The translations under genes and the position numbers were made by a program. Positions 25,568 through 30,148 of a stretch of DNA of 64,000 nt are shown one piece after another; within the stretch, counting starts at the first letter, position 1, and each line of letters opens with the position of its first letter. The notes under the pieces are model-generated. The model was not told where the DNA came from. It did no database searches and worked only from the letters and a program-made list of their open reading frames with translations. The DNA lies in the NCBI RefSeq assembly GCF_005239135.1, contig NZ_QKNX01000001.1:186001-250000 (forward strand), read 5' to 3'. Source of the stretch: Natronomonas salsuginis (GTDB taxonomy: Archaea; Halobacteriota; Halobacteria; Halobacteriales; Haloarculaceae).

Positions 25568-26593
25568 TCAGTAGCCCCGCTCGACGAGGAAGTCCGCGAT
25601 CCCCTCGAGCAGTTCGCTGGACTCGTTGTCGGGAAGCACCTCGAGTCGCTGCTTTCCGCTTTCGATGAGATCGCTAGCTAACTCGCGGGCGAAGTCGATA
25701 CTGCCGGCGGCTTCGAGCCGCTCGACGGCCGCCTCGATCTCGGCGTCGCTCGGATCGTCGGGCACGAGCGAGTCCGTGTCGATACCCTGATCCCGAGCGT
25801 GCAACGTGATCACCGTGCGCTTCCCCTCAATCAGATCCGATCCACGCCGTTTGCCGAGCGTGTCACTCGGGACGGTCAAATCGAGCAGGTCGTCTTGAAT
25901 CTGGAAGGCGCGGCCGATGTCGAGTCCGTACCCGTGAAGCTCGTCGACGGTCTCTTGTTCGCACCCGAGCAGAATCGCGGGGATCGACGCCGCTGCCGCG
26001 TAGAGTACGGCGGTTTTGAACTCGACCATCTCGAGATACTCCTCGGTCGTGACGTCGGTTCGGGTTTCGAACTCGACGTCGAGCGACTGCCCCTCGCAGA
26101 TCTCCGTACACGTGGTCGCCAACTCGTCGAGCGCGGCGACGCTTCGGTCGGATGGCGCGCCGGTTCCGAGCATATACTCGAACGCTTTCGAATAGAGCGT
26201 GTCACCGGCGAGAATGGCGGTTTCGAGGTCGTATTCTCGATGTACGGATGGGACGCCACGCCGGAGATCGTCGTCGTCCATGATGTCGTCGTGGATCAGC
26301 GTGAACGACTGGATGACCTCGATCGAGACCGCCGCCGAGAGGATGTCAACGGACTCACCGTGCGGTGTGGGGAACGCCCGGTAGTCGTCCGCCGGGGATC
26401 CCGTCTCCGACACCGATTCGGCGACCAACAGCAGAACCGTCGGGCGCAGTCGCTTTCCACCGGCGTCCAACAGATACCGCGATGCCGAGTAGAGTCGCTC
26501 GGGCTTTCGTATCGGGAGCTGCTCGGCGATCGCGTCGTTGACGATCGCTCTGCGGTCCTCGATGGCCGATTCGACGCGTTCTGAGGCCATCAT
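25568..26593 (-). CDS. idsA: Geranylgeranyl diphosphate synthase, IdsA-type polyprenyl synthase (341 aa)
   Basis: Builds C20 (and possibly C25) isoprenoid diphosphates for archaeal ether lipids and carotenoids. The first aspartate-rich motif is DDIMD (102-106), the second DDLLD (234-238), with GGKRLRP (45-51) for IPP binding. Phe97, five residues before the first motif, is the bulky residue expected in archaeal GGPP synthases. The start overlaps the RNase J stop (ATGA); an ATG three bases later is equally possible. It is followed by a hairpin at 25547-25567. Confidence 0.95.
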
Positions 26594-27930
26594 TCCGTGA
26601 GCTGGATGATGTTCCCGTTTTGGGTGACGTGGAGGTCGCGCCCGAGTTCGTAGCCCTCGTTTCTCACCAGATCGACGTACGGCGAGAAGCCCTTCATGTC
26701 CTGGTGGGCCGGGATGATGTTCTTCGGCTGCAGCGCGTCGATCATCTGGTAGTGACCCTCTTGGTTCAGGTGACCCGAGACGTGGATGTCGTCGTAGATC
26801 CGAGCGCCCTGCATGCCGAGCAGCTTTTCGGCTTGGTATCGCTGCCCCTCGTTGGTGGGCTCCGGAATGACTCGCGCGGAGAAGATGACCTTGTCGCCTT
26901 TATCGAGTTCGTACGGTGTCTCGCCGCGAGCCATCCGCGTCAACATTGCTCGAGGCTCGCCCTGGTGGCCGGTGACGACCGGGAGGTAGTCCTCTTTGCC
27001 CTCGTTCATGATTCGCTTGAACGTCCTGTCGACGGACTTTCGGTGACCGTACATCCCCAGATCGCTGGGGAAGTCGATGAAGTCGAGCCGTTCGGCCGTC
27101 CCGGAGTACTTCTCCATCGATCGGCCGAGGAGAACCGGCTGTCGGCCGATGTCCTCGGCGAACTCGACGAGCGATTTCACGCGGGCGATGTGGCTCGAGA
27201 ACGTGGTCGCGACGATGCCGCCGTCGTAGTCCTCCAGCGAGTACATCACGTCCTTCAATTGTGCGCGCGCGACGGACTCGGAGGGCGTCTTGCCCTTCTT
27301 GCCGGCGTTCGTGCAGTCTTCGATATAACAGAGCACGCCCTCGCGGCCGATCTCGCGGAACCGCTTCATGTCGATCGGGTCGCCGATGACCGGGTTGTGG
27401 TCCATCCGCTTGTCAAGGCCGTAGACGACGGCTCCCTCGGGGGTGTGGAGGACGGGATTGATCGCGTCGATGATGGAGTGGGTGACGTTGACGAACTCGA
27501 GTTCGCACTTGTCACCGATCGGCATCGTCTCGCCGGGGTCCATCTTGATCAGATCGTTCTGGACGCCGAACTTCTCCTCGCTTTGGATCTGCTGTTTGAC
27601 CAGTTCGATCGTAAACGGCGTCGCCACGATCGGTGCGCTGTATCTGTGCGCCAACTTGGAGATCGCCCCGATGTGATCGAGGTGACCGTGCGTCGGCACG
27701 ATCGCCTGCACGTCGCCCTCGATATCGGACATGACGCGGTCGTCCGGGATCGCGCCCATGTCGATAAGATCGAGACTGTGCATCCGTTCGGTTTCGACGT
27801 TGTCGTGGATGAGAACCTTCGACAGGTTCAGCCCCATATCGAAAATAACGACGTCGTCTCCGGCACGAACGGCTGTCATCTGTCGACCGACTTCCTCGTA
27901 TCCGCCAATTGTTGCGATTTCGACTTCCAT
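26590..27930 (-). CDS. rnj: Archaeal RNase J, 5'-3' exoribonuclease (446 aa)
   Basis: A metallo-beta-lactamase/beta-CASP nuclease that degrades or matures RNA from the 5' end. Zinc motif THGHLDH (80-86), a second His in NVTHSIID and the beta-CASP motifs ([44 protein letters not shown]). It has a good GGAGGT ribosome-binding site (complement of 27936-27941), so the mRNA has a leader. It overlaps idsA by 4 bp. Upstream lies 328 nt of structured intergenic sequence. Confidence 0.94.
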
Positions 27931-27979
27931 TATTTACCTCCGAGAGGCCGCTCGCGGCTCAGCCGCTGAGCGACCGGCC

Positions 27980-27987
27980 ATATACAC
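27980..27987 (-). promoter_or_regulatory. Proximal TATA box of RNase J
   Basis: A GTATATGG-like box on the minus strand about 50 nt before the RNase J ATG. It would give a leader of about 25 nt containing the GGAGGT site. A second, distal TATA box lies at 28171-28180. Confidence 0.45.
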
Positions 27988-28024
27988 GGCCGTCTATGAC
28001 GGACGCGACACCGATGGAATCGGT

Positions 28025-28148
28025 GCGCCGACGGTCGGAACCGCGAGGGCGTACGATGGGTTGGCCCAGCGTCTCGCCCCCTCAGCCGTCTCCAGTCAGC
28101 AACTATGCCGGTCGCCCGTCCGAGTCCGGGGCGACCGTCGCTCGGTTA
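28025..28148 (-). ncRNA. Candidate structured ncRNA or autoregulatory leader upstream of RNase J
   Basis: A minus-strand promoter (28171-28180) points to a transcript starting near 28148, more than 200 nt before the RNase J start. It can form a perfect 8-bp hairpin (GGTCGCCC/GGGCGACC, 28110-28136). A second long hairpin spans 28045-28083 (GAGGG(g)GCG/CGCCCTC enclosing TGGG-CCAA-CCCA). A competing 9-bp outer stem pairs 28132-28140 with 28029-28037. No ORF fits. Single-stranded or loop pieces TAGTTGC (28099-28105) and AACCCA (28057-28062) could pair with conserved 23S rRNA segments, as an H/ACA guide would, but no clear ACA boxes were found. Confidence 0.4.
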
Positions 28149-28162
28149 CCGAAGTCTTCGGT
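28148..28162. promoter_or_regulatory. 7-1-7 palindrome ACCGAAG-T-CTTCGGT at the distal RNase J promoter
   Basis: A perfect inverted repeat with one central base. It lies just downstream of the TATA box at 28171-28180 and covers the predicted transcription start. This is the place where a repressor operator would act. It could instead be a short 5' hairpin of the transcript. Confidence 0.4.
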
Positions 28163-28170
28163 GGCCGGGG

Positions 28171-28180
28171 TTAAAAAGTG
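28171..28180 (-). promoter_or_regulatory. Distal TATA box upstream of RNase J
   Basis: CACTTTTTAA on the minus strand with G+C-rich flanks. It is well separated from any start codon, so it must serve a long leader or a non-coding RNA. Confidence 0.5.
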
Positions 28181-28258
28181 CGTGGGTCGCGCGCTGGAGC
28201 AGGAGGGAACCGAGAACGCCACCACCGGCGAGCGCCGCAGCGACGCATCGCATCCCGC

Positions 28259-28990
28259 TCAGCCGATTCTCGTTCCCACGTCCTCGCCGCGTGCGAACGC
28301 GTCGAGTCCGTCGATGTCGAACACGTACGCCGGTGCGTCGAGCGACAACAGTTCTCGGACCTTCCCGGCCATCCCGCCCGTGACGTCCGTCGCATTGCTC
28401 TCACCGACCGCGTCGGCGACGTCGTCGAACGCCTCGATCCGATCGAGAACGTTCCCGTCGACATCGTAGACACCGGGAACCGCCGAACAGACGCCGACAC
28501 GGTCGGCATCCATGGCGGCCGAGAGTTCCACGACGAGCTCGTCTCCGGAGACGATCGTCGCGCCGGCCCCCGTTTGTACCACCGTGTCGCCGTGAAGCAC
28601 CGGAACGAACGCCTCGTCGAGCATCGCCGCTTCGGGATGTGTCTCCAATCGCAACGCTCCGTCCGCACTTCGGCTCGCCGCGGAAAACGGATGGACGGGG
28701 ACCGCTTCGACGCCCGCGTCGGCGAGCGCGTCGACTACGACCTCGTTGAGCCGCTTCATCGCGCCGTGGATCCCCCGAACCGCGTCTGCGTCGCGGGTCC
28801 CGTCAGTCGTCGAGACGCCGTGCGTCGCGGCGTGGTGGTGGCCGAAACTGCCGCCACCGTGGACGACGACGACACGCCCGGGGATCGTCGCGATCGACGC
28901 TGCTGCCCGTTCGAGCGCGGACCGATCGATGGCCTCCGGTCGATCCTTCTCCGTGATGACGCTCCCCCCGAGTTTGAGGACGGTCGTCAT
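28259..28990 (-). CDS. ipk: Isopentenyl phosphate kinase (243 aa)
   Basis: Amino-acid-kinase-fold enzyme that converts isopentenyl phosphate to IPP in the archaeal mevalonate pathway. Lys6 and the Gly-rich LKLGGSVIT open the protein; VVVHGGGSFGHHHA (about 41-54) holds the catalytic His. TGGMAGKVREL near the end is the family IPK segment. It overlaps mevalonate kinase by 4 bp. In haloarchaea IPK works with a decarboxylase acting on phosphomevalonate, which is not in this window. Confidence 0.94.
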   Translation of the reverse strand: MTTVLKLGGSVITEKDRPEAIDRSALERAAASIATIPGRVVVVHGGGSFGHHHAATHGVSTTDGTRDADAVRGIHGAMKRLNEVVVDALADAGVEAVPVHPFSAASRSADGALRLETHPEAAMLDEAFVPVLHGDTVVQTGAGATIVSGDELVVELSAAMDADRVGVCSAVPGVYDVDGNVLDRIEAFDDVADAVGESNATDVTGGMAGKVRELLSLDAPAYVFDIDGLDAFARGEDVGTRIG

Positions 28991-29979
28991 CGTTCGCGTC
29001 GAACCCCCTCCGTGTCGAGTTCGGCTCGGAAGGCGTCCTCACAGCCCGGCGTGTACTCCAGAGCGGTGTGCGTCTGTTCGGTCCGGTCGAGCGCGACGAT
29101 ACAGCCGCCGCCACCGGATCCAGTCAGCTTCGCGCCGAGCGCATCGGCCTCGCGAGCCGCCCAGACCATGGTGTCGAGCGATCGTGCGGAGACGCCGAGC
29201 GCCGACAGGAGGCCGTGATTGAAGTTCATCAGCCGGCCGATCTCCTCGACGTCGCCGTCGTCGAGCGCGATCTCACCCGACCGAACGATGTCACCGATCG
29301 ACTCGACGGTGTCGGCAGCGAAGCCGTACGCTTCCTTCAGCTCCCGAACACCGGCGACGAGTTTCCCGGTGTCGCCCGTATTGCCATCGTAACCGATCAC
29401 GAACGGCAGCGTCGGGACGTCCTCGATACGTTGACAGTCGTCCCCTTGCACGCGGACGGCTCCCCCCATCGCAGAGCAGAACGTGTCGGCTCGCGACGCC
29501 TGCCCGTCCTGTACGTCGTACTCGACCCGATAGGCCCGGTCCGCGATCGTTCCGGCGTCCAGTTCGACGCCGAGTTCGCGCGCCGCCGCGTCGATGCCAG
29601 CGACGACGACAGCGGCCGAGGAGCCGAGTCCGGCACCGAGCGGAATGTCGCTCTCGACCGTAATGTCGAATCCGATACCGTCCTCGCCCGCGGCGTCGAG
29701 CGCCTGTTCGATCGCGCCGTCGATGTAGCCCATCGCCGCCTCGACGAGCGGCGTCGGTACGTCGACGTCCGGCCGGGGATCGGTCCCGCTGCCGCCCCAG
29801 GTGACGGTGAACCCATCGAGCGTCAGGTCGTTCGCCCGTACCCGGAGCCGTTCGTCCTCGCGCCGCTCAACCGTGACCCGTGCCCGCCGCTCGATGGCGC
29901 ACGGAACGGCCGGTTCGCCGTAGACGACGGCGTGCTCGCCGAAGAGATACACTTTGCCCGGGGCGCTCGACGTGGTCAT
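28987..29979 (-). CDS. mvk: Mevalonate kinase (330 aa)
   Basis: GHMP kinase that phosphorylates mevalonate. Motif 1 SAPGKVYLFGEHAVVYGEPA (about 4-23), motif 2 PLGAGLGSSAAVVVA (ATP loop, about 103-117) and motif 3 KLTGSGGGGCIVAL (about 290-303) are all present. The frame is open upstream, but the ATG at 29979 gives the family start. It is the first gene of mvk-ipk and supplies the isoprenoid branch completed by idsA downstream. Confidence 0.95.
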   Translation of the reverse strand: MTTSSAPGKVYLFGEHAVVYGEPAVPCAIERRARVTVERREDERLRVRANDLTLDGFTVTWGGSGTDPRPDVDVPTPLVEAAMGYIDGAIEQALDAAGEDGIGFDITVESDIPLGAGLGSSAAVVVAGIDAAARELGVELDAGTIADRAYRVEYDVQDGQASRADTFCSAMGGAVRVQGDDCQRIEDVPTLPFVIGYDGNTGDTGKLVAGVRELKEAYGFAADTVESIGDIVRSGEIALDDGDVEEIGRLMNFNHGLLSALGVSARSLDTMVWAAREADALGAKLTGSGGGGCIVALDRTEQTHTALEYTPGCEDAFRAELDTEGVRRER

Positions 29980-30148
29980 ACTGGTAGCTCGTGGGGGCCG
30001 AACAAAAAGAGTACCCGAACGCGCCTCGGATCGGTCGTTTCGCCCGGTTCGGCAAAGAAGCGGTTCACGGCGTCGGCGAGACACCTCGCGTCTCGTTCAC
30101 ACGCCAGAACGCGGAGCGGGGACCGGGAATGAATTGCGTCCGCTCTGT

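What the first reader, a model, noticed from the sequence alone, without database searches (positions are those of the whole stretch)
27931..28258. Structured, promoter-led region upstream of RNase J
A distal TATA box (28171-28180), a 7-1-7 palindrome over the predicted start (28148-28162), a perfect 8-bp hairpin (28110-28136), a long second hairpin (28045-28083) and a competing 9-bp outer stem are packed into 160 nt with no ORF. Options are a stand-alone ncRNA, perhaps an H/ACA-like guide, or a leader through which RNase J controls its own mRNA, as known for bacterial RNase E.
Basis: partly seen in the sequence, partly recalled or inferred. Interest (0 to 1): 0.55.

Follow-up and report, generated by a model that had tools for sequence, protein, structure and literature searches.

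The report
Conserved RNA leader controlling haloarchaeal RNase J
The gap before the RNase J gene is the start of its own messenger RNA, an elaborately folded and conserved leader in salt-loving archaea that appears able to cover or expose the ribosome start, which is unusual because these microbes mostly make messages with no leader at all.

Summary
The window is Natronomonas; 27931-28147 (minus strand) is a ~217-nt leader running from a promoter to the RNase J start codon. It folds far better than shuffles (z -4.2); equal-sized flanking DNA in relatives does not.

Relatives decide what it is. Leaders of two sequence classes precede RNase J across haloarchaea. Covariance models scanned over 145 genomes gave 115 matches: 112, in 112 genomes, lie directly upstream of an RNase J gene; the other three are weak. 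Helices show compensatory changes. In class A (this window) the RNA's first bases (CCGAG) pair with CUCGG ending 8-12 nt before the AUG. The next 5' element is complementary both to a local partner (hairpin P2) and to the 3' end beside the ribosome site. In 11 of 12 Natronomonas leaders the long-range fold is predicted more stable; the window's own is near balance.

H/ACA guide: not supported. Stand-alone ncRNA: disfavoured by strict linkage and fixed spacing to the AUG.

Best explanation: a cis-acting, probably bistable leader giving feedback control of RNase J synthesis, working like bacterial rne/pnp/rnc leaders but of unrelated structure. RNase J as the effector is inferred. No transcript data were available. 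New family of a known kind.

The parts
28171..28178 (-). TATA box of the RNase J promoter (CTTTTTAA)
   Evidence: Sequence. Over 87 class A upstream sequences that fit the search pattern, 25 nt separate the TATA 6-mer from (A/T)CCGAG in 79, 24 in 5, 26 in 3.
28146..28148 (-). predicted transcription start (inferred, no transcript data)
   Evidence: Conserved TATA spacing and abrupt start of conserved sequence at AACCGAG.
27931..28147 (-). structured leader RNA of the RNase J mRNA
   Evidence: z -4.19; genus alignment A1; consensus fold; linkage.
28141..28145 (-). P1 5' strand CCGAG, the first bases of the RNA
   Evidence: P1 cells paired 98.3% over 35 class A leaders.
27940..27944 (-). P1 3' strand CUCGG, beside the start codon
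   Evidence: Found in the last 60 nt in 37 of 38 class A leaders; its end is 8-12 nt before the ATG in 36 and 15 nt in one.
27936..27941 (-). Shine-Dalgarno-like GGAGGU, overlapping the P1 3' strand
   Evidence: Sequence; matches the complement of the 16S 3' end in L001. GGAG in the last 22 nt in 18 of 38 class A leaders against 3 in the control stretch.
28129..28138 (-). element (1) ACGGUCGCCC, the 5' strand of P2 and the alternative partner of element (4)
   Evidence: P2 144 of 144 cells paired in 16 Natronomonas.
28107..28117 (-). element (2) GGGCGACCGGC, 3' strand of P2 and alternative 5' strand of P3
   Evidence: P2 144/144 and P3 175/176 cells paired; P2 covariation.
27968..27978 (-). 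element (3) GCCGGUCGCUC, 3' strand of P3
   Evidence: species-swap test of (2) against (3), p 0.00005.
27946..27953 (-). element (4) GAGCGGCC, alternative partner of (1) or of (3), just before the ribosome site
   Evidence: species-swap test of (1) against the last 50 nt, p 0.00005.
28045..28083 (-). central variable hairpin
   Evidence: Sequence variable but pairing at its base kept in the consensus fold.
28008..28024 (-). hairpin P5 (CACCGAUUCCAUCGGUG)
   Evidence: consensus fold, columns 131-149.
27989..28004 (-). hairpin P6 (GUCCGUCAUAGACGGC)
   Evidence: consensus fold, columns 156-169.
26590..27930 (-). RNase J gene, directly downstream of the leader
   Evidence: ORF; the 80 relatives kept are 83-97% identical.
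25568..26593 (-). idsA-like polyprenyl synthase gene overlapping the end of RNase J; probable second gene of the operon
   Evidence: ORF; a relative directly downstream of RNase J in 108 of 108 loci with enough downstream DNA. Gene name recognised from the sequence, not from a family search.

Best explanation
It is a cis-acting structured 5' leader of the RNase J (rnj-idsA) mRNA. Shown by sequence comparison: a promoter at fixed distance, a conserved folded RNA abutting the start codon, strict linkage to RNase J, and helices with compensatory changes. Proposed working (inferred): while the RNA is being made, element (1) first forms the local hairpin P2 with (2). When the leader is complete, (2) can pair with (3) and (1) with (4), and the first bases of the RNA (CCGAG) pair with CUCGG beside the AUG. 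This long closed helix covers the ribosome site and also buries the 5' end. The open form exposes a single-stranded 5' end and start region. The balance sets how much RNase J is made, most likely sensed by RNase J itself (binding or cutting the leader, or entering at the exposed 5' end), so that the essential nuclease adjusts its own synthesis. My sub-estimates: cis-acting leader 0.9; two functional conformations 0.5; RNase J as the sensed factor 0.5.
For: Linkage: class B model R1 gave 91 matches in 88 of 145 genomes, 88 of the 91 directly upstream of an RNase J ORF on the same strand; class A model R3 gave 24 matches in 24 of 145, all 24 just upstream of RNase J (compared by eye). Thirteen second-copy RNase J genes seen carry no match. 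Geometry: TATA to CCGAG 24-26 nt in 87 of 87 pattern matches; CUCGG 8-12 nt before the ATG in 36 of 37. Structure: class A mean z -4.24 over 38, class B -2.17 over 29; flanks -0.21 and -0.28. Covariation: A2 24 cells changed on both sides against 8.5 shuffled, 0 of 500; A3 20 against 6.9, 0 of 500; A4 15 against 5.4, 0 of 500. Alternatives: species-swap tests in class A for (1):(4), (1):(2) and (2):(3), p 0.00005, 0.00015, 0.00005; 5' element predicted to change partner between the early fragment and the full leader, 13.3 nt against 6.7 shuffled. G074 keeps GCUCCCG/CGGGAGC although several hundred nt lie between them. Context: ribonucleases often autoregulate their mRNAs (PMC3997798); aRNase J is essential in Haloferax volcanii, which lacks an RNA exosome, and its homodimer has endoribonuclease activity (PMC10470531).
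Against: No transcript, probing or reporter data. The window's own leader is the exception in the switching analysis: P2 form -115.8, long-range form -114.5 kcal/mol, only 3 switching nt, distal duplex z -0.1. In class B the species-swap test is weak for (1):distal (p 0.053) and null for the local partner (p 0.46), so bistability there rests on single examples. The swap permutation does not correct for relatedness. GGAG occurs in only 18 of 38 class A and 0 of 29 class B leaders, so Shine-Dalgarno masking cannot be the general mechanism. idsA always follows RNase J (108 of 108), so the regulated gene could be idsA. Folding energies are standard parameters, not multimolar KCl. The number of further standard pair types did not exceed shuffles for P1+P2 (10 against 10.4).
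Confidence: 0.57

Rival explanations
1. The leader is cis-acting but senses something other than RNase J: a metabolite, ion, salt or an RNA-binding protein, possibly serving idsA and isoprenoid supply rather than RNA decay.
For: idsA is directly downstream of RNase J in 108 of 108 loci and here MVK and IPK lie upstream. Class B has an almost invariant hairpin, ACG-GC-UGYAAGAC-GCCG, with twelve invariant positions in 20 sequences, as expected of a binding site.
Against: IPK is absent from at least 2.2 kb upstream in 40 of 76 loci while the leader stays. P1 sits on the RNase J ribosome site, not on idsA.
Confidence: 0.25
2. A stand-alone structured ncRNA (or one processed from the leader and acting in trans) that happens to be encoded before RNase J.
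For: Own promoter; the 5' and 3' ends pair (P1), as in many stable ncRNAs.
Against: 112 of 115 model matches are next to RNase J and the rest are weak (E 0.004-0.007). CUCGG keeps 8-12 nt to the AUG in 36 of 37. No Rfam match.
Confidence: 0.1
3. An H/ACA pseudouridylation guide RNA.
For: In the window's own sequence 9 nt of the 5' element can pair beside the presumed 2621 site and two hairpins exist.
Against: H/ACA hairpins for these sites have been proposed in haloarchaea, as two hairpins separated by a long spacer (PMC2584109).
Confidence: 0.02
4. DNA-level operators (inverted repeats for a transcription regulator), not an RNA structure.
For: P2 is an inverted repeat just after the start site, and the window has a palindrome at 28148-28162.
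Against: Pairs include G-U (5 of 144 P2 cells and 26 of 143 (1):(4) cells in Natronomonas); compensatory changes in distant strands; the palindrome is not in the relatives' letters.
Confidence: 0.05

Closest known systems
Bacterial RNase E 5' UTR (rne leader; Rfam 'rne5' recalled)
   Same: Leader of the mRNA of the main decay ribonuclease, used for feedback; [quoted passage not shown]
   Different: Unrelated enzyme, domain of life and structure; no Rfam match; here a 5'-end/start-codon helix with alternative partners.
E. coli pnp and rnc leaders
   Same: Ribonucleases that regulate their own mRNA (PMC3997798 passages).
   Different: Those depend on RNase III cleavage (recalled); no such enzyme was tested here.
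Archaeal ribosomal-protein leaders (S15, eL15, L4)
   Same: Rare predicted cis-regulatory RNAs of archaea, S15 also in Halobacteria (PMC7247131 passages).
   Different: Upstream of ribosomal protein operons; not RNase J.
Attenuator-type 1:2 / 2:3 / 3:4 leaders (trp type, recalled)
   Same: Four strands with mutually exclusive pairings.
   Different: No leader peptide or terminator was found or tested; the output is proposed to be ribosome-site access.

Membership tests
Cis-regulatory structured leader | Lies between a promoter and the start codon of one gene, in many genomes | tested here: met
Cis-regulatory structured leader | Always linked to the same gene | tested here: met
   112 of 115 matches beside RNase J
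Cis-regulatory structured leader | Compensatory base changes | tested here: met
Cis-regulatory structured leader | Alters expression of the downstream gene | not testable with these tools
   needs reporters
RNase-autoregulated leader | The encoded nuclease acts on or binds the leader | not testable with these tools
   needs depletion or in vitro cleavage
RNase E 5' UTR family (rne5) | Matches the covariance model | tested here: not met
   no Rfam match of this name up to E 5 in 26500-29500
H/ACA guide RNA | Bipartite complementarity around a target uridine, conserved among relatives | tested here: not met
   the uridines were placed from recalled sequence context
H/ACA guide RNA | Box ANA 3' of the hairpin at fixed distance, conserved | tested here: inconclusive
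   required inside the scan; not scored on its own
H/ACA guide RNA | K-turn or K-loop | tested here: inconclusive
   the GAGA/A internal loop in Natronomonas (A1 columns 56-59 and 121) does not fit a canonical k-turn by eye
Riboswitch | Binds a small ligand | not testable with these tools
   no Rfam riboswitch match

The most novel reading that the evidence does not exclude
A class-wide, co-transcriptional RNA switch in which the very 5' end of an archaeal mRNA is either an open landing site for RNase J or the lock on its ribosome site, so that an essential nuclease in organisms without an exosome titrates itself. It exists in at least two sequence classes that look unrelated but share promoter geometry and the paired-5'-end logic.
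Probability: 0.3. Interest if true: 0.8.

Novelty: new variant of a known kind. Interest (0 to 1): 0.62.

Why it matters
Haloarchaea are the textbook leaderless-mRNA organisms: 72% of Haloferax volcanii coding transcripts are leaderless, and the authors concluded that control by structured leaders is not typical there (PMC4983044 passages). Few cis-regulatory RNAs are known or even predicted in archaea (PMC7247131). A long conserved leader on the gene for an essential RNase would be a clear exception. It would link RNA-decay capacity to RNA structure in archaea, and would make archaeal RNase autoregulation testable in a genetic model.

Tried and rejected
H/ACA guide: scanned three 23S sites against 67 leaders with shuffles; no conserved guide. 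Rfam on the locus and on 10 related loci: nothing at gathering score, two chance-level hits at E 0.55 and 3.3 elsewhere in the searched stretch. K-turn/L7Ae binding: the internal loop does not fit by eye; not pursued. uORF idea: ATG occurs 30 times in class A leaders against 46 CAT and 59.5 expected, only mildly depleted. Shine-Dalgarno masking as the general mechanism: rejected, class B has no GGAG. RNAalifold on the wide class A alignment was not run because element (3) is misaligned there. Class B local pairing by species swap: null. Literature: the listings showed no report of an RNase J leader in haloarchaea. The library lacks most subscription papers, supplements could not be opened, and Weinberg 2017 (224 motifs) is not held, so absence from print is not shown.

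Rows dropped: of 190 upstream sequences 185 gave a leader (L023, L099, L105, L124, L140 dropped); 68 non-redundant, minus L019 (a deletion variant) gives 67. A1 leaves out L016 (insertion) and partial loci; A2 uses 20 of 29 class B leaders; A3 35 of 38 class A; A4 30 of 38. L005 is misaligned by 1-2 columns at its 3' end in A1, which makes some of the broken cells of P1 and P1b. The 33 genomes of 145 without a model match were not all read: at least 12 of them were (L139, L153-L160, L177, L179, L193) and show a leader by eye.

Full report
What is in the window. The minus strand reads MVK (28987-30084), IPK (28259-28990), a gap, RNase J (26590-27930), an idsA-like gene overlapping its end (25568-26593), then a glutamyl-tRNA synthetase-like gene (gene names are recognised from the sequences). 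The nearest RNase J relatives are Natronomonas. The gap holds a TATA box at 28171-28178, a conserved RNA start at AACCGAG (28147) and a leader that ends at the RNase J ATG. The leader folds with MFE -123.5 kcal/mol against -102.9 +/- 4.9 for dinucleotide shuffles, 0 of 200 as good. Rfam has nothing for it.

The leader in relatives. 92 distinct upstream sequences from the first two searches sort by motif into class A (46), class B (39), six others (divergent members or fragments) and one masked. Upstream stretches of 60 further RNase J genes across the order show leaders in nearly all. Class A: AACCGAG, then ACGGYCGCCC and GGGCGRCCGGC, a variable middle, then GCCGGUCG and CUCGG before the AUG. 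Class B: CCGCGGG, a nearly invariant hairpin ACG-GC-UGYAAGAC-GCCG, then GUUUCAGUG and a final hairpin with a second UUUCARUG. Both classes share the promoter spacing by eye. In class A 24-26 nt separate the TATA 6-mer from CCGAG in all 87 pattern matches, 25 nt in 79 of them, and CUCGG ends 8-12 nt before the ATG in 36 of the 37 leaders that have it.

Linkage. Model R1 (class B) over 145 genomes: 91 matches in 88 genomes; 85 lie beside an RNase J place listed and 3 more were verified by tblastn. The other 3 score 27-28 bits (E 0.004-0.007) with no RNase J within the fetched flanks. Model R3 (class A 5' part) over the same 145: 24 matches in 24 genomes, all just upstream of RNase J (compared by eye). 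No genome is in both lists, so 112 of 145 have a match beside RNase J. Second copies of RNase J (13 seen) have none. IPK is absent upstream in 40 of 76 loci, while idsA follows in 108 of 108. So the leader belongs to the RNase J-idsA unit, and only experiment can say which of the two genes is the object of control.

Structure and covariation. Class A leaders have mean z -4.24 (38) and class B -2.17 (29). Equal-length DNA upstream of the promoter has -0.21 (37 loci) and -0.28 (28 loci), with no value at or below -3, against 31 of 37 and 5 of 28 leaders. On A2 the class B structure is paired in 83.5% of cells against 35-46% for slid versions, with 24 both-sided changes against 8.5 shuffled, 0 of 500. 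On A3, P1 and P2 are paired in 95.1% against 27-48%, 20 both-sided changes against 6.9, 0 of 500, though further pair types do not exceed shuffles (10 against 10.4). On A4, P2 has 15 against 5.4, 0 of 500. The structures were chosen by me on these sequences, which favours them over the slid controls.

Alternative pairings. In 16 Natronomonas the P2 pairing (1):(2) holds in 144 of 144 cells and the P3 pairing (2):(3) in 175 of 176, although both use strand (2). (1):(4) holds in 135 of 143. RNAalifold prefers P1, (1):(4) and P3. Constrained folding of 12 Natronomonas leaders puts the P3 form 5.7 to 18.2 kcal/mol below the P2 form in 11. The window's own leader is the exception, P2 -115.8 and P3 -114.5. 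A swap test, in which each 5' strand is paired with partners from other species, favours the own partner in class A for (1):(4), (1):(2) and (2):(3) (p 0.00005, 0.00015, 0.00005), but in class B only weakly for the distal partner (p 0.053) and not for the local one (p 0.46); relatedness is not corrected. Folding the first part and then the whole leader, 13.3 of 30 5' nucleotides change from a local to a distal partner in class A against 6.7 in shuffles; class B 7.1 against 5.4. Single class B examples are suggestive: L183 CUCGCG/CGCGAG or CUCGCGGG/CCCGCGAG; L170 and L173 a long local hairpin or CCCGCCGG/CCGGCGGG. In G074 a large insertion separates the core from the 3' module, yet GCUCCCG/CGGGAGC is kept.

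Mechanism. Shown: a conserved structured leader, with P1 joining the RNA's first bases to the region 8-12 nt before the AUG. Inferred: P2 forms first, the long-range fold later closes the ribosome site and the 5' end, and the balance is regulated. RNase J is the most economical effector. Ribonucleases often regulate their own mRNAs (PMC3997798, passages). Haloferax aRNase J is essential, its homodimer has endoribonuclease activity, and its homologs are typically 5'-3' exonucleases (PMC10470531, abstract and passages). A buried 5' end would resist a 5'-3' nuclease while also blocking translation. None of this is tested.

What it is not. 11 of 67 is above the 3.4 expected for the first site; I read this as compositional because the minimum match is short and positions differ, but that was not proven.

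Novelty. Haloferax coding transcripts are 72% leaderless, and structured-leader control was judged atypical for haloarchaea (PMC4983044, passages). No paper in the listings reports an RNase J leader in haloarchaea; the library is incomplete. Works like: RNase leaders of bacteria. Member of: no known family.

Noticed in passing
L203 (G074:C3:2302300-2303300): One low-GC haloarchaeal genome has a large insertion inside the leader, between the conserved core and the 3' module, with the terminal pairing strands kept.
   Followed up: partly
L016:1348-1627 (Natronomonas leader): About 60 nt inserted in the apical part of hairpin P5; the rest is unchanged.
   Followed up: no
L019 / L025 (G013:C70): Leader with the whole middle missing between element (1) and the CCGGCCCACC stretch; could be a real deletion or an assembly error in an incomplete genome.
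   Followed up: no
window 28148-28162: Perfect 7-1-7 palindrome just upstream of the predicted start, seen in this species only among the Natronomonas aligned.
   Followed up: partly
window 28133-28141: Nine nt of the 5' element (GCGACGGUC) are complementary to 23S rRNA GACCGUCGU; in most other Natronomonas only six nt fit.
   Followed up: partly
window 25568-26593 and 108 related loci: The idsA-like gene follows RNase J directly in every locus examined, a strikingly constant pairing of an RNA nuclease with a lipid-pathway enzyme.
   Followed up: partly
class B leaders, e.g. L183:62-220: Nearly invariant hairpin loop UGYAAGAC and a twice-repeated UUUCARUG motif, looking like binding sites of an unknown factor.
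   Followed up: no
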